This document shows, piece by piece, positions 5,332-34,423 of a stretch of 64,000 nucleotides of DNA. The first letter of the stretch is position 1; the number at the start of each line of letters is the position of its first letter. The position numbers and the translations under genes were made by a program. A model generated the notes under the pieces. The model did no database searches, had not been told where the DNA came from, and saw only the letters and a program-made list of their open reading frames with translations. The DNA is from Oceanidesulfovibrio indonesiensis (GTDB taxonomy: Bacteria > Desulfobacterota > Desulfovibrionia > Desulfovibrionales > Desulfovibrionaceae): NCBI RefSeq assembly GCF_007625075.1, contig NZ_QMIE01000008.1, positions 114,877-178,876 of the forward strand, in the 5' to 3' direction.

Positions 5332-7153
5332 ATGATCCCCCCGAGTCTATCAAAATGGGATAATGATAAAAACTTAAATGGTTTGTTGTTCTTTGCGCAA
5401 CGCATGTGCGAGTTGCTTTATGACCAAACTTTGGATTCTTATAAGGTCCCTGCTTTAAATACACATACTAGCATTCTTGAGGTGAGAGCTTTAATTGAAA
5501 GGTTTGCATCTGGACATATTCCGCAAAGAACGTATTTTTTCGCTTTGGCTGAGGCCAAAAAGAAGATTAGCGATGAAGCTATTTTTTCGCTAAAGGAAAA
5601 AGAAAGGCTTCTTAGGTATGTTAAAAGTATAGAAATTAAAGAAGATAAGTCAAAGATAAGGAAGGATGCTGCTGTTTTGGCGGCCGAGGTTTATGCTAAT
5701 TATTGGACCAAGCTCAAACAAAAGGTAGTTGAAGTTGTTAGCGTGCCTAATAAAAAAAAGGAAATAGAAGCACTTTGCACCAACTTAGCAGTAGAAATAC
5801 AGAACAGGGGCTACCATAAAGGATATATGTTTCATAAGACAGCCAAGTTTTTTTTTCAGTAGTAATGTTGAACCTAAGAAAATTTCCGCCCCTAATGTTG
5901 TAGAAGAGTACCTTGCGATATTTGATGGAAAGCCTAGGGCTTATGAGGTCGTTTTTCGAGGCAGATCCATACCTGTTAGACTGAGGAGTCTGGCGAAAAC
6001 ATTTGGAATAAATATTAAAACAAAAATGCCAAATTCTTATTTGAGGGCACGTAAGTTTACAGATTTTCTTGACGAAACAGAGGGCGAGAAGCAAAAACTT
6101 TTTTTTATTCACAAAGTAGATAAAGTTTTAGACCCTCATCAAGCAAGGGAGGATGCTTATAAACAAATACAGTTTTTTTTCGATGTATGCCGGTTTCATA
6201 ATCATGACATTGAATTTGAGGTCTTTGCCCACGCGTATTGCTATCATGATGAAAAAAAAGAAGGTTACTTGATAAAGCCACCCCGTGCACCAATGCAGTG
6301 TGGCTTAATTAGTCTCAAAACCGAAGAAGAAGATAGAATTGAAACCAATCTCAAAATTTTAGCGGGGTTATATTTTTCTTTAAATGATCGCATCCGGTTT
6401 ATTAAAATGATGGATTATCACCATGCAGCAATGCAAACATCTAGCTATGAAAATCAATTGGTTTCACTTTGGGTGGCCATGGAAAGTTTCTTGCCGGATC
6501 CTCCAAGGCGCGCAAAGCGTATAGATCATTTTTGCCAACAGCTTTTGCCAGTATTAACATTGAGCTATAATGAGAAAATTATTTACAATCTTGCCAACGA
6601 TTTGTTCGCAGCTGGAGAATGTGTGCAGGCACATATAGAGCATGCACCCGTTGATGGTGACAAGTATAGTAAGGTGCTAAAAATAATAACAACAAAAGAA
6701 ATGAAAGAGTGGAGGAAGGAGTTGTATTCGTTGATAGGTCGTCATCCGCTGCTCATAAATAGATGTTTTACAATTATGGAGGCATATTCAAGTGCTACAA
6801 AGATTCATGAAACGGTTGTTTCTCATAGGAACAAAGTTGAACTGCGAATATATTCAGCACGCAATATGATAGTGCATAATGCGCGGCATTTGCCTTACAT
6901 TAAGACGCTAGTCGAAAACATGCATGGGTATATAGACACGCTGGTTCTTGCTATGGGTATGGTTGGCAATTACTGCAATAATAATATTACAATCCAAAGC
7001 GCTTTAGAAATATTAAGAGTGCGCGAAGAAGAATATCTTGGTATGCTTAAGGATGCTGGGAAGAGCAGGACAAGTTTAGAGAATTGCAATGAATATATAC
7101 TATACTCTGAAAATCCGTTGTTGTCTATGGCGTCAAGGGTTGAAGTGATTTAG
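5332..7153 (+). pseudogene. HEPN-domain protein, split by a frameshift in a T9 run; possible defence gene
   Basis: Two open frames form one protein. The first runs from ATG 5332 (AAGGAG five bases upstream; an earlier ATG at 5311 is less likely) and stops at 5862. The second is open from at least 5849 to 7153. Removing one T from the nine-T run at 5848-5856 joins them into about 606 residues with no other stop. The C-terminal part has LVSLWVAMESFLP, as in ApeA-like HEPN families, and RNMIVH (6860-6877), matching the RNxxxH catalytic motif of HEPN ribonucleases. These are established marks of RNA-cleaving toxin and antiphage proteins; the defence role here is inferred. The region is strikingly AT-rich compared with its neighbours, which suggests recent transfer. 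The frame may be restored by slippage, be phase-variable, be truly broken, or be a sequencing error. Confidence 0.7.
5848..5856 (+). repeat. Homopolymer T9 at the HEPN frameshift
   Basis: Nine consecutive T lie between AAG and CAG. Read in the upstream frame they lead to a stop (CAG TAG); a product with one T fewer continues as KFFFSSNVEPKK into the downstream frame. Runs of this length are known sites of polymerase slippage and of length variation. Confidence 0.9.
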
Positions 7154-7239
7154 CTGTGCTGTTTCGTATAGATTGAAATTGATTTTCCAGATTGTACAGA
7201 AACATTGATACCATTGCAGGAGAGAACGCCCCGCCCCCC

Positions 7240-30105: not shown

Positions 30106-31818
30106 TTATGGTTCTATGCCCAGCATGCGCGCCGTGGCCACGCCGCCCTGGAGGTTCTCCGTATCCGTGAGACCGGCGGCGTCCAGCATGACCTGCGCCT
30201 CGTAGGAACGCGCGCCCGTATTGCACACGAGCACGAGCTTTCTGCCGCGCGGGACCTCGTCCATGCGTTTAGGCAACTCGTCCTGCGGGATGGCCTTCCA
30301 GTATGTCGGGTCCATGCGCTCGGCCACGGGGCCGGAGTCGGCGGAGGCGCGCAAGTCCAGGAAGCATATCTCCCCGGAGTCCTTGTCCTCCCACCGCTTG
30401 ATGAACTCCTCGGGCGCCAGACCGCGGTTCATGCCGTCCAGAATGTTGGACGCCACGTTGCCCAGGGCGTTGATGACGTCCATGGCTGAGGAGAAGGGCG
30501 GCGAGTAGGCGAACTCCATGATCTGCAGGTCGTCCACGGTAATCCCGTGGGGCATGGCCGCGGCCACGGCGTTGATCCGGCCCACCACCGCGTCGCGCAT
30601 CTTGGACATGCCTTGCAGGCCCAGCACCTTGCCGGTATTCCGGTCCACCACGAGATCCAGGTACATGAGGCCCTTTTCCGGGTAGAAGTGCGCGCGATCC
30701 AGTTGCGAGATATGCACGTTGATGGCGTCGAATCCTTCGCGAGCAGCGGCGGCCGCGGTGAGGCCCACGCCGGTGACGGCGTGTTCGAAGAGCTTCACGC
30801 ACCAGCTGCCCAGCACGCCAGGGAATTTCTTGTGCCGGCCGGCGAGGTTGTCGCCGATGATGCGGCCCTGGCGGTTGGCCATGGAGCCCATGGGCAGGAA
30901 TGTGGGTTTTCCGCTGATGAGGTGCTTGACCACCACGCAGTCGCCGCCGGAGAAGATGTCCGGGTCCGAGGTGCGCAGTTCGTCGTCCACGATGATGCCG
31001 CCGCGCTCGTGTACGTCCAGCCCGGCCTCGCGGGCCAGGCCGTCGTTGGGAGCAACGCCGGCGGCCATGATTACGAGGTCGGCGTCCAGGGTGCGCTTGT
31101 CCGTGACCACGCGCGTTACCCGGCCGTCCGCGCCTTCCAGGGCCGTGACCTTCTCGCCGAAATAGAAGGAAATATCGTTCTCTTCCATGTGCCGTCGGGC
31201 CATGTCCGCCAGATGCGGGCTCGCCAGCCCGGGCAGGAGCTGGTCGGTGATCTCCACCACGCTGGTGTCGATACCCCACATGTCTGCCAGTGCCTCGGCC
31301 ATTTCCAGCCCGATGAACCCGGCGCCCACGATGACGGCCTTTTCCACGGCGCCGGTCTGCACCAGCTCGCGGATCTCTATCGCCTCATCCAGGCCGGAGA
31401 TTGCGTGCACGCCTTCGAGCTCCACACCGGGGATGGGCAAAGCGCGCGGGCTGGAGCCCGTGGCGATGACGAGCTTGTCGTAGGGCAGGGTCTCCTGCGC
31501 GCCTGTCGCCAAGCTTTCGATGAGCACCTCCTTCTTCTGCCGGTCTATGGACACGGCGCGGGTGGAGGGCCTGACGTGCACGCCTTTGGCCGCCTCGAAG
31601 AAGGCGGGGTCGCGAACCACGTGGAAGCTCGTCGTCTTCAGCTCATCCGGGCTGGATACGTCGCCGGATACGTAGAAGGGGATACCGCAGCCGCCGTATG
31701 AGATGGACGGGGACATGTCCACCATGGTCACCTCGGCCGAGGGAACGAGCCGCTTGTAGCGGCAGGCGGCCTTGGGGCCAAGGGCGACGGCGCCGATGAT
31801 CACGACGCGATCGGCCAT
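30106..31818 (-). CDS. FAD-dependent CoA-disulfide reductase with C-terminal rhodanese domain
   Basis: A 570-residue flavoprotein. The FAD motif VVIIGAVALGPKAA starts at residue 5. The active-site region SYGGCGIPFYVSGD carries the single redox Cys typical of CoA-disulfide reductases. The NAD(P)H motif VIVGAGFIGLEMAEAL is central. A dimerisation domain follows, then a rhodanese domain (about 470-570) with CNTGARSYEA as active loop. Related fusions (CoADR-RHD) reduce CoA disulfides, persulfides or polysulfide, which fits a sulfur-rich metabolism (inference). It is monocistronic. Confidence 0.9.
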   Translation of the reverse strand: MADRVVIIGAVALGPKAACRYKRLVPSAEVTMVDMSPSISYGGCGIPFYVSGDVSSPDELKTTSFHVVRDPAFFEAAKGVHVRPSTRAVSIDRQKKEVLIESLATGAQETLPYDKLVIATGSSPRALPIPGVELEGVHAISGLDEAIEIRELVQTGAVEKAVIVGAGFIGLEMAEALADMWGIDTSVVEITDQLLPGLASPHLADMARRHMEENDISFYFGEKVTALEGADGRVTRVVTDKRTLDADLVIMAAGVAPNDGLAREAGLDVHERGGIIVDDELRTSDPDIFSGGDCVVVKHLISGKPTFLPMGSMANRQGRIIGDNLAGRHKKFPGVLGSWCVKLFEHAVTGVGLTAAAAAREGFDAINVHISQLDRAHFYPEKGLMYLDLVVDRNTGKVLGLQGMSKMRDAVVGRINAVAAAMPHGITVDDLQIMEFAYSPPFSSAMDVINALGNVASNILDGMNRGLAPEEFIKRWEDKDSGEICFLDLRASADSGPVAERMDPTYWKAIPQDELPKRMDEVPRGRKLVLVCNTGARSYEAQVMLDAAGLTDTENLQGGVATARMLGIEP

Positions 31819-31955
31819 GAGTCAACTCCTTGCATCAGATTTGGTTGGTATATCTTGTCATTGCTTACATAGTCGGGCACACCATAGCCAAATTTCCTGT
31901 TGAGGGACAGGGTAAATACGAAAACACTGCATTCTCGACCACTTCGAGGGGAAAC

Positions 31956-32687
31956 ATGACAGAAACGAACCAGGCTTACCTAGTCCGCGAAATACTGGAG
32001 ATAATCCGCCGCACCGCCATCCACTACGGCCTCTGGTTCGCCGAGGCCGAACGCCAGCTGGGAGCGGTTAGTGCGCACGCCGCCGAGTCCGAAGCCGGCG
32101 ACCGCCTCATGGCGATCCTGATGAAACGATTGTCCAAAACTCTGGACGTCAGCGTCACTGAAGACGGCTTGCCGGAAGGACTGATGAAGCTCGATGCGGC
32201 AACGCTGGAAAAGCTGCGCGACTCCATGGCCACCAACTGGCTCGCCGCCGACGGAGTGTGGTTCCAGGCCATCGAAAGCCAGCTCTCCATGCACGACGCC
32301 AAGCGCGTGAACGACACGTGCTGGACCCGGTTCTCGCCATATGAGGCCCTGCGCATCAAGCAGCTGCTGGAACTGCCGGACTACGGCGGCCTGCCCGGGT
32401 TGCAGACGGCGCTTGCCCATCGCATCTACGCGCGGGTCAACCCCTGGGAAATCGTGGAGGATACGGCCGGCTCGTTCGTCTTCCGCATGAAATCCTGCCG
32501 GGTGCAGACCGCCCGCACACGCAAGGGGCTTGCCGAGTACCCGTGCCAGTCCGGCGGCCTGGTGGAGTACCGGACATTCGCCCAGGCCATCGATCCGCGA
32601 ATCACGACCGAGTGCATCGCCTGCCCGCCTGACCCCCACCCCGAGGATTGGGTCTGTGCGTGGCGGTTCACAATGCCGTCCGGGTAA
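31956..32687 (+). CDS. Conserved cytosolic protein, DUF6125-like
   Basis: A 243-residue soluble protein starting at ATG 31956 with GAGGGGAAAC upstream. It begins MTETNQAYLVREILEIIRRTAIHYGLWFAEAERQLG and ends in a Cys-rich segment (ITTECIACPPDPHPEDWVCAWRF) with three Cys. The HYGLWFAE stretch recalls the DUF6125 family of anaerobes, from memory. The function is unknown; the Cys residues could bind metal. It diverges from the CoA-disulfide reductase gene. Confidence 0.65.
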   Translation: MTETNQAYLVREILEIIRRTAIHYGLWFAEAERQLGAVSAHAAESEAGDRLMAILMKRLSKTLDVSVTEDGLPEGLMKLDAATLEKLRDSMATNWLAADGVWFQAIESQLSMHDAKRVNDTCWTRFSPYEALRIKQLLELPDYGGLPGLQTALAHRIYARVNPWEIVEDTAGSFVFRMKSCRVQTARTRKGLAEYPCQSGGLVEYRTFAQAIDPRITTECIACPPDPHPEDWVCAWRFTMPSG

Positions 32688-32823: not shown

Positions 32824-32855
32824 AAAAAGCAACGCCGGGCGGAGGGGCCCGGCGT
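32824..32855 (-). terminator. Terminator of the structured RNA
   Basis: A 9-bp stem, ACGCCGGGC with GCCCGGCGT (32832-32840/32847-32855), has a 6-nt loop and is followed on the minus strand by TGC and TTTTT (32828-32824). On the plus strand no T tract follows, which fixes the direction. Confidence 0.7.
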
Positions 32856-33067
32856 CGGTAGGGAGGTGAAAGTCTTTGCGAGGGCGGGTACGCGGACTGG
32901 AATAACCAGCTGTTTCTGGCGGCATTGCGCCGCGGAACGGCTGCGTACCTATTCGAATTCTCCCTGGCGCTTCGATGCGCCGCTATGATCGTTCGAATCC
33001 ATTACTTCGGTCTACCCTCCGTTTCAAAAGTGCCCGCAGGTTGAGTAAAGAGAGTACCTTTGCCTTT
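32824..33067 (-). ncRNA. Candidate iron-regulated structured RNA upstream of metX
   Basis: Between 32688 and 33205 there is no normal gene, but the minus strand has all parts of a short transcript. A promoter with Fur box (33074-33101) would start it near 33067. Stem 32951-32957/32992-32998 (ATTCGAA with TTCGAAT) encloses hairpin GGCGC/GCGCC (32966-32981). Stem 32887-32893/32943-32949 (7 bp) encloses two hairpins (32897-32909 and 32919-32933), making a three-way junction. An intrinsic terminator ends it (32832-32855 plus T5). A 17-codon open frame (33002-32949, MDSNDHSGASKRQGEFE) lies inside the first domain. It could be a RyhB-like regulatory RNA, a small mRNA, or a cis element. I recognise no known RNA family. 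Confidence 0.5.
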
Positions 33068-33073
33068 AATCTG

Positions 33074-33101
33074 ATGATAACCATTCTCATTGGCGTGTCC
33101 A
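33074..33101 (-). promoter_or_regulatory. Fur-box promoter directed away from metX
   Basis: On the minus strand TGGACA (33096-33101) is 16 bases from TATCAT (33074-33079); each differs from consensus by one base. The plus-strand sequence TGATAACCATTCTCA (33075-33089) covers the spacer and -10 and fits the 7-1-7 Fur consensus with one mismatch. A weaker plus-strand promoter toward metX (TTGAGT 33041-33046, 18 bases, TTTAAT 33065-33070) lies beside it, so Fur could influence both directions. Confidence 0.55.
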
Positions 33102-33205: not shown

Positions 33206-34423
33206 ATGAGCGAGTACATCGACGGCCAATCCAGCCGCTCCGAATCCGTGGGCATTGTGGAGCGCAAATTCTTCACCCTGCCGGAGGGGGCTGGTCCTTT
33301 CGTCCTGGAGGGCGGGGCGAACCTCTCCCCGGTGACCCTCGCCTACGAGACGTATGGCGAACTCTCCCCGGCGCGGGACAACGCCGTGCTCATCTGCCAC
33401 GCCCTCACCGGCGATGCGCACGTAGCCGGCTACTATTCCGATAAAGACCCCAAGCCCGGCTGGTGGGACCTCATGGTCGGCCCGGGCAAACCCATCGACA
33501 CATCCCGCTATTTCGTCATCTGCTCCAACGTGCTGGGCGGCTGTACCGGCTCCACCGGGCCGAGCTCAATCAACCCGGCCACGGGAAGACCCTACGGTCT
33601 GGAGTTCCCGGTGGTCACCATTGGCGATATGGTGCGCGCGCAGAGGCTTCTCGTTGAGCACCTGGGCGTCGAGCGCCTGCTCGCCGCCGTGGGCGGCTCC
33701 ATGGGCGGCATGCAGGTGCTGGAGTGGACGGTGCGTTACCCGGACAGGATCGCGGCGGCAGTCCCGCTGGCCACCACGCCACGGCACACCGCGCTGAACA
33801 TCGCTTTCCACGAGGTGGCGCGCCAGTGCATCATGGCGGACGTGAACTGGAACCGCGGCGCCTACTACGACGGCGAGAAACCCTCCACCGGCCTGGCCGT
33901 GGCGCGAATGATAGGCCACGTGACCTACCTTTCGGACGAGGCCATGCGCCGCAAGTTCGGCCGCCGGTTGTACGAGAAGGAAGCCTTCTCTTTCGGCTTC
34001 GATCTGGAATTTCCGGACTTCCAGGTGGAGAGCTACCTGCGCTATCAGGGCAGCAAGTTCGTGGAGCGGTTCGACGCCAACTCCTTCATCTACATCACCA
34101 AGGCCGCGGACTACTTCGACCTCGCCCAGCAGCACGGCGGCGGGTCGCTCACCGAGGCCATGTCCAGGTCCACCTGCCGGTTCCTCGTGGTCTCCTTCTC
34201 GTCGGACTGGCTCTACCCCACCTCGCGCTCCCGGCTGCTGGTGCAGGCCATGAAGAAGGCCGGGCTGGAGGTGAGCTTCGCCGAGGTGGAGGCGGAATTC
34301 GGGCACGACGCGTTCCTGCTGCGCAACGAGCGACTGTTCGAGCTCGTGGAAAGTTTTCTGGAGCACGCCCTCGCCGCGGAGCGCAAACGCACGGAGACCG
34401 CACCCAGGGAGGTATGGGGCTAA
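33206..34423 (+). CDS. metX: Homoserine O-acetyltransferase MetX
   Basis: A 405-residue alpha/beta hydrolase that acylates L-homoserine in methionine synthesis. Family marks are CHALTGDAH, NVLGGCTGSTGPSSINP, nucleophile Ser165 in GGSMGGMQ, Asp in SSDWLYP and His in FGHDAFLL. The acyl donor (acetyl- or succinyl-CoA) cannot be fixed from the sequence alone. The gene stops immediately before metW with no spacer (TAA then ATG). Confidence 0.95.
   Translation: MSEYIDGQSSRSESVGIVERKFFTLPEGAGPFVLEGGANLSPVTLAYETYGELSPARDNAVLICHALTGDAHVAGYYSDKDPKPGWWDLMVGPGKPIDTSRYFVICSNVLGGCTGSTGPSSINPATGRPYGLEFPVVTIGDMVRAQRLLVEHLGVERLLAAVGGSMGGMQVLEWTVRYPDRIAAAVPLATTPRHTALNIAFHEVARQCIMADVNWNRGAYYDGEKPSTGLAVARMIGHVTYLSDEAMRRKFGRRLYEKEAFSFGFDLEFPDFQVESYLRYQGSKFVERFDANSFIYITKAADYFDLAQQHGGGSLTEAMSRSTCRFLVVSFSSDWLYPTSRSRLLVQAMKKAGLEVSFAEVEAEFGHDAFLLRNERLFELVESFLEHALAAERKRTETAPREVWG

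What the first reader, a model, noticed from the sequence alone, without database searches (positions are those of the whole stretch)
32824..33101. Candidate Fur-controlled structured RNA beside metX
On the minus strand a near-consensus promoter (TGGACA, 16 bases, TATCAT) overlaps a Fur-like box. It is followed by a stem enclosing a hairpin, then a three-way junction closed by a perfect 7-bp stem, then an intrinsic terminator with T5 in that direction only. Iron-repressed small RNAs (RyhB type) are well known in gammaproteobacteria; I know of no such RNA described for this locus.
Basis: partly seen in the sequence, partly recalled or inferred. Interest (0 to 1): 0.72.

Follow-up and report, generated by a model that had tools for sequence, protein, structure and literature searches.

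The report
Iron-switched member of new RNA family
A stretch beside the gene metX carries a conserved, base-paired small-RNA sequence from a family that recurs in many Desulfovibrionaceae genomes and has no match in the Rfam catalogue, and this copy is predicted to be switched on by the iron regulator Fur when iron runs short.

Summary
In detail: promoter, Fur-like box, structured region and terminator lie on the minus strand where stated. The other genome held for the genus keeps the unit beside metX, its 17-bp Fur-like box identical in diverged flanks. The lineage is Desulfovibrionaceae, not Gammaproteobacteria. Covariance models built here match 90 of 288 family genomes (135 hits at E<=0.1; two in 45 genomes; 15 close tandem pairs); in 348 genomes of the order, the 80 that match at E<=0.01 are all in this family. 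No Rfam 15 family reaches its cut-off. Of 85 distinct copies, only this one and its orthologue score as Fur boxes clearly above the rest. No Hfq gene was found in 29 genomes. Best reading: a Fur-repressed, Hfq-independent trans-acting sRNA, the iron-controlled paralogue of a family spread over many Desulfovibrionaceae. Transcription, Fur control and targets are untested.

The parts
33096..33101 (-). -35 hexamer TGGACA
   Evidence: TGGACA also in the sister species
33074..33079 (-). -10 hexamer TATCAT, 16 nt from the -35
33074..33090 (-). Fur-like box ATGAGAATGGTTATCAT overlapping the -10
   Evidence: 14 of 17 to WTGAAAATNATTTTCAW; identical in G001 with diverged flanks; consensus from PMC545781
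32824..33067 (-). predicted transcript, about 244 nt (start site inferred about 7 nt after the -10)
   Evidence: inference from promoter and terminator
32999..33022 (-). family 5' motif, ACGGAGGGU followed by an A-rich AAUAA-like stretch
   Evidence: ACGGAGG positions kept in 49-53 of 53 rows;
   Evidence: arms identical in G001; 58-65% of cells paired family-wide
32966..32981 (-). hairpin P1 (GGCGC AUCGAA GCGCC)
   Evidence: innermost pair A-U 26, C-G 17, G-C 10 in 53 rows of a structure-free alignment; the next three pairs kept in 52 of 53, one row gapped
32887..32949 (-). stem P2, arms 32943-32949 and 32887-32893, closing the three-way junction
   Evidence: 7 of 7 pairs with two-sided changes, 96.8% of cells paired
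32911..32942 (-). hairpin P3 inside the junction
   Evidence: 93.1% of cells paired, two-sided changes in 4 of 4 pairs, with 10-17 rows gapped
32896..32910 (-). hairpin P4 (GCUGG UUAUU CCAGU)
   Evidence: 97.1% of cells paired, two-sided changes in 4 of 5 pairs
32857..32868 (-). C-rich linker CACCUCCCUACC, possible antisense seed or intramolecular partner of GGAGGG
   Evidence: C-rich CCUCCC also in G001, with a 2-nt gap in the alignment; pairing computed; role inferred
32824..32857 (-). intrinsic terminator hairpin (32857-32830) and T run
   Evidence: hairpin kept in G001
32949..33002 (-). 17-codon ORF inside the RNA, judged incidental
   Evidence: 5 nonsynonymous and 0 synonymous codon changes against G001

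Best explanation
This is a member of a structured small-RNA family of Desulfovibrionaceae whose promoter carries a conserved Fur-like box, so that the RNA is likely repressed by iron-loaded Fur and made when iron is scarce, and would act in trans on mRNAs without Hfq. Shown by sequence comparison: a conserved unit of promoter, Fur-like box, RNA and terminator in both genomes held for the genus; a covarying fold (P1 hairpin, and P2 with P3 and P4 in a three-way junction); a convergent gene, not a same-strand one, next downstream in the window; no Hfq gene detected. Inferred: Fur sits on the -10 and blocks RNA polymerase when iron is plentiful; iron shortage releases an RNA of about 244 nt ending at the terminator; it base-pairs with target mRNAs, through either the conserved ACGGAGGGU segment or the C-rich CCUCCC linker of this copy and its orthologue, and lowers or redirects translation of iron-using proteins. 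The second copy in the same two genomes lacks a Fur box, so iron control appears to have been gained by one paralogue of an older family.
For: Sister-species conservation of the whole unit. Family: R2 hits in 90 of 288 genomes and 14 of 44 genera at E<=0.1. Covariation: 85.3% of cells paired vs 66.1% in shuffles, score 0.430 vs 0.148, 0 of 500 shuffles as high, slid versions at most 0.127; P1 on a structure-free alignment. Fur: box at 12 of 14 specified positions of TGATAATNATTATCA; 9 (G000) and 12 (G001) such sites vs 2 and 1 for the reversed pattern; 3 of 7 G001 site loci examined lie near genes of kinds on the published list: HD-domain (about 90 nt downstream), P-type ATPase and MoxR-like AAA (either side of the site), flavodoxin (about 580 nt away); four Fur-family matches per genome. 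By the 7-1-7 score, 2 of 85 distinct copies stand out, this one and its orthologue (13; next best 11). The next gene downstream in the window is convergent and real: DUF6125, E 7.5e-64, while the overlapping same-strand ORF has no family. Downstream ORFs in 40 fetched loci are same-strand in 23 and opposite in 17, of varied identity. Hfq in 0 of 29 genomes, 5 of 14 controls ringing.
Against: No expression data. The Fur box is seen in only two genomes, all that are held for the genus; 14-of-17 matches occur at 4 places in this window, and by that 17-bp score two copies of other genera reach 13. Four of the 7 G001 Fur-site loci examined showed no listed kind of gene (one ORF scanned in each), and most G000 site loci were not scanned. 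In G001 a same-strand MFS transporter gene starts about 315 nt after the terminator. No targets identified. GGAGGG is predicted mostly paired (unpaired 0.07 in the window, 0.0 in G001, mean 0.24 over 63 RNAs), and CCUCCC only 0.28 and 0.19 unpaired, which weakens either as a free seed. Only 35 of 85 copies pass a strict sigma-70 pattern within 100 nt upstream. Single-sequence folding is only mildly unusual (z -1.57).
Confidence: 0.62

Rival explanations
1. A structured RNA of this family that binds a protein, for example a CsrA-titrating RNA of the CsrB/RsmY kind, rather than pairing with mRNAs.
For: CsrA is encoded in 30 of 34 genomes, G000 and G001 among them; the near-invariant ACGGAGGG contains an ANGGA core (motif recalled); mean ANGGA count 2.18 vs 1.42 in shuffles over 60 RNAs; a few copies (G077, G013, G100) have AUGGAG as the P1 loop.
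Against: The excess is under one motif per RNA, as expected from the single 5' motif; on average only 0.83 GGA per RNA is unpaired in the predicted fold; the P1 loop of the window and of most copies lacks GGA (by eye).
Confidence: 0.15
2. A short mRNA or dual-function RNA translating the 17-codon ORF at 33002-32949 from the GGAGGG ribosome-binding-like site.
For: ATG and an in-frame stop are present in both copies of both genomes of the genus, 17 or 21 codons long; GGAGGG lies upstream.
Against: 5 nonsynonymous and 0 synonymous codon changes between orthologues; 6 and 2 between the second copies. Copies shown from other genera lack the ATG at this place while keeping GGAGG and the fold (by eye).
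Confidence: 0.06
3. The Fur box serves the divergent metX promoter, or is fortuitous, and the RNA is constitutive like its paralogues may be.
For: 14-of-17 matches occur at 4 places in the window; no other copy scores as clearly; metX starts about 115 bp away on the other strand.
Against: The box overlaps the -10 of the minus-strand promoter and is the longest invariant block in an otherwise diverged promoter; no consensus promoter was found on the + strand in the scanned region.
Confidence: 0.13
4. A cis-acting leader or riboswitch-like element.
For: Compact covarying junction ending, in most relatives shown, in a terminator-like stem and U run (by eye); downstream ORF on the same strand in 23 of 40 loci, including an MFS gene in G001.
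Against: The next downstream gene in the window is convergent; 17 of 40 downstream ORFs are on the other strand and identities vary, the largest groups of homologous neighbours having 6 and 4 members.
Confidence: 0.04

Closest known systems
RyhB (Rfam RF00057, accession recalled), enterobacterial Fur-repressed sRNA
   Same: Intergenic sRNA-like unit with a Fur-like box over the promoter and an intrinsic terminator.
   Different: No Rfam match; about 244 nt with a three-way junction (RyhB is about 90 nt, recalled); a lineage without a detected Hfq gene; not a gammaproteobacterium.
PrrF1/PrrF2 of Pseudomonas (recalled), tandem Fur-regulated sRNAs
   Same: Related copies, in tandem in some relatives (15 pairs, 94-222 nt apart).
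   Different: Only one copy carries a Fur-like box in this genus and it is not in tandem; no Rfam match.
Fur-regulated sRNAs of other lineages working without Hfq or with other helpers (FsrA, IsaR1; recalled)
   Same: Would share low-iron induction and, for FsrA, a C-rich pairing segment.
   Different: No sequence relation shown; targets unknown here.
6S RNA (RF00013)
   Same: Similar length range, stand-alone structured RNA.
   Different: 6S is found elsewhere in these genomes (33 of 34), and no 6S match lies at this locus.

Membership tests
RyhB | match to its Rfam family | tested here: not met
   No gathering-level match at the locus; at E<=5 only terC, SorX and Atu_C7, all below cut-off
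RyhB | Fur box over the promoter | tested here: met
   by sequence only
RyhB | Hfq-dependent pairing | tested here: not met
   Hfq PF17209 in 0 of 29 genomes, own included; 5 of 14 control genomes ring
RyhB | induced by iron depletion | not testable with these tools
   needs RNA measurement
CsrB/RsmY-type CsrA sponges | several GGA motifs in hairpin loops | tested here: not met
   mean 0.83 unpaired GGA per RNA over 60 RNAs
6S RNA | RF00013 match | tested here: not met
   no match at the locus; the genome's own 6S lies at G000:C6:31814
New Desulfovibrionaceae RNA family defined here | 5' motif ACGGAGG plus P1, P2 and P4 with covariation | tested here: met
   the window sequence helped build the models, so its own match is by construction, the covariation of the relatives is not
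Fur-regulated trans-acting sRNA (functional class) | acts in trans on mRNAs | not testable with these tools
   only indirect: no consistent downstream gene

The most novel reading that the evidence does not exclude
The Desulfovibrionaceae run a family-wide, Hfq-free RNA hub: a duplicated structured RNA with a near-invariant Shine-Dalgarno-like GGAGG that engages ribosomes or mRNAs directly, in which individual copies are rewired to new signals; the window shows one such copy captured by Fur as an iron-starvation output.
Probability: 0.2. Interest if true: 0.85.

Novelty: new variant of a known kind. Interest (0 to 1): 0.64.

Why it matters
Iron-sparing sRNAs are best known from Hfq-bearing bacteria (recalled). 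Here is a covarying RNA family without an Rfam match, in sulfate reducers where no Hfq gene was found, with one paralogue carrying a Fur-like site. It gives a concrete, testable candidate for how such iron-demanding bacteria could save iron after transcription, and a family in which the same RNA scaffold sits under different promoters.

Tried and rejected
Rfam at gathering and relaxed thresholds: no family reached its cut-off at the locus or in 8 relatives' loci (one sub-threshold match away from the RNA). CsrA sponge: not supported. 6S: separate locus. Peptide-coding reading: codon changes argue against it. Cis element: no consistent downstream gene. Fur box in other genera: best other 7-1-7 score 11 against 13 (N counted as a match); best other 17-bp score 13 against 14. 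Viral contigs: 0 pattern matches. GGAGGG as a free single-stranded seed: predicted mostly paired, left open.

Rows dropped: (15 matches) the loci L069, L070, L072, L073 and L074 were judged by eye to be chance and left out, though L069 and L072 score E 0.0006 and 0.003 in the small search; L066, L068 and L075 were kept as relatives but left out of R2 because they are longer. L105 (E 0.11) stayed in the A7 counts; 71 rows reduced to 60 distinct. Model helices not supported: columns 54-55/93-94 (38.5% paired), and the outermost one, which falls on U runs in many relatives. The order and class searches covered the same number of genomes with the same tally, so the second added nothing. In one search at most 11 first-look candidates per genome were scored, nine, so genomes without a match may still hold a copy.

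Papers: passages seen in PMC545781, PMC5701242, PMC11109978 and PMC13370916 (a Bacteroides RNA); term searches without a hit in PMC8632094 and PMC4162548; abstract and outline of PMC11124144; the rest seen only as listings. Ten paper searches: none of the titles and abstract beginnings listed describes this RNA; the lists were capped and most subscription papers are not held.

Full report
What is there. On the minus strand between metX (33206-34423, NCBIfam MetX above cut-off) and a convergent DUF6125 gene (31830-32687, E 7.5e-64) lies a promoter with TGGACA-16-TATCAT, a Fur-like 17-bp box at 33074-33090 over the -10, about 200 nt of structured sequence, and an intrinsic terminator at 32857-32830. 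In isolation none of this is striking.

Sister species. One further genome of the genus is held (G001). It has the unit beside metX with 78% identity, E 4.3e-52. The 17-bp box is identical while the bases around it, TGGACA apart, have largely diverged. The core motif, P2 arms, P4 and terminator hairpin are kept. One of 200 shuffles of the G001 RNA folds as well as the RNA itself (z -2.39); for the window 13 of 200 do.

A family. A model from these two sequences (R1) gave 15 matches in 14 of 247 family genomes at E<=0.5. Five loci were judged chance by eye; the other ten shared the 5' motif ACGGAGGG or GCGGAGGG and a GCG..CGC hairpin. A second model from seven sequences (R2) found 135 matches in 90 of 288 genomes, 14 of 44 genera, at E<=0.1; 45 genomes have two matches and 15 have a pair 94-222 nt apart, on one strand in each pair. 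A search of the order (348 genomes) gave 80 matching genomes at E<=0.01, all in this family. Only 9-11 first-look candidates per genome were scored, so absence is weak evidence. A pattern scan of named genomes gave 23 records: 18 titled as Pseudodesulfovibrio, Humidesulfovibrio, Desulfovibrio, Desulfocurvus or Desulfovibrionaceae, and 5 titled only Proteobacteria or Deltaproteobacteria. Contig G005:C9 (80,583 bases) equals in length the Pseudodesulfovibrio pelocollis record found there, and both give the same match scores, which places family f1 in Desulfovibrionaceae (inference).

Structure. On 71 aligned matches (60 distinct) 85.3% of cells form standard pairs against 66.1% in shuffles; the covariation score is 0.430 vs 0.148, 0 of 500 shuffles reach it, and slid versions score at most 0.127. 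P2 has two-sided changes in all 7 pairs and 96.8% of cells paired; P3 93.1%; P4 97.1%; P1 100%. That alignment was fitted to the structure and related sequences inflate such counts, so I also aligned 53 copies without structure: the P1 closing pair at the loop is A-U in 26, C-G in 17 and G-C in 10, with no mismatch in 53. In most relatives shown P2 runs straight into a U tract and seems to be the terminator; in the window P2 is internal and a separate terminator follows (by eye).

Fur. The published delta-proteobacterial box is WTGAAAATNATTTTCAW, and predicted Desulfovibrio targets include flavodoxin, an HD-domain protein, a P-type ATPase and a MoxR-like ATPase operon (PMC545781, passages). 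The window box matches 14 of 17. In this genus sites within two mismatches of TGATAATNATTATCA number 9 (G000) and 12 (G001) against 2 and 1 for the reversed control. Of 7 G001 site loci looked at, 3 lie near such genes: an HD-domain gene about 90 nt downstream, a P-type ATPase and a MoxR-like AAA gene on either side, and a flavodoxin gene about 580 nt away. In the other four the one ORF scanned gave a histidine kinase, an HMA-domain protein, a Cache-domain protein or no family. Most G000 site loci were not scanned. Four Fur-family matches are present in each genome. Of 85 distinct RNA copies, the metX-side copies of these two genomes score 13 on the 7-1-7 pattern and the next best 11; on the 17-bp consensus they score 14 and two others 13. 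The second copies in the same genomes (L138, L139) show no such box. Iron control therefore looks specific to this paralogue.

Mode of action. No Hfq gene was found in 29 genomes of the order, own included, with 5 of 14 controls ringing. CsrA is present (30 of 34 genomes) but the RNA does not look like a CsrA sponge. 6S RNA is encoded elsewhere. In the window the next gene downstream is convergent; in G001 a same-strand MFS gene starts about 315 nt after the terminator; over 40 fetched loci the next downstream ORF is same-strand in 23 and opposite in 17, of varied identity (ORFs called mechanically). A cis role is therefore unlikely. I favour a trans-acting, Hfq-independent antisense RNA, and mark that step as inference. 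Two pairing segments are plausible: the near-invariant ACGGAGGGU and the C-rich CCUCCC linker of this copy and its orthologue. They are mutually complementary; in the window they are predicted to pair in part with each other, and in G001 GGAGGG pairs instead with the C-rich stretch just after P2, so which is exposed is unknown.

Verdict. A real, conserved RNA gene by comparative evidence; a probable Fur-controlled promoter; a function that remains inferred. As a class, Fur-controlled sRNAs are known; the family, its Hfq-less setting and the capture of one copy by Fur appear new within the searches made (Rfam; paper searches listed under Tried and rejected).

Noticed in passing
L155, L176, L141, L142, L149, L160, L161, L162, L171 (relatives): Two copies of the RNA family lie in tandem on one strand (15 pairs 94-222 nt apart; L161 and L162 pairs seen); in several pairs the two promoters look different (CTTGC...GCGTATA against TGGACA...GCTTAT, by eye).
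   Followed up: partly
L143, about 6057-6217: This copy appears to hold a second P1-like hairpin (GGCGATTGAGTCGCC) after the first.
   Followed up: no
L145, L146, L164, L172-L174, L156: Several copies sit beside genes that look like GGDEF/EAL or HD-GYP signalling proteins (by eye from sequence, not scanned).
   Followed up: no
window 7173-7189: A 15-of-17 match to the delta-proteobacterial Fur consensus lies just after the ORF 6026-7153; it may be a further Fur site or chance.
   Followed up: no
window 31830-32687: The gene convergent with the RNA is a DUF6125 protein (Pfam) with no NCBIfam match.
   Followed up: partly
window 30106-31818: CoA-disulfide-reductase-like flavoprotein of 570 aa, below those NCBIfam equivalog cut-offs and longer than the matched profiles at its C-terminus.
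   Followed up: no
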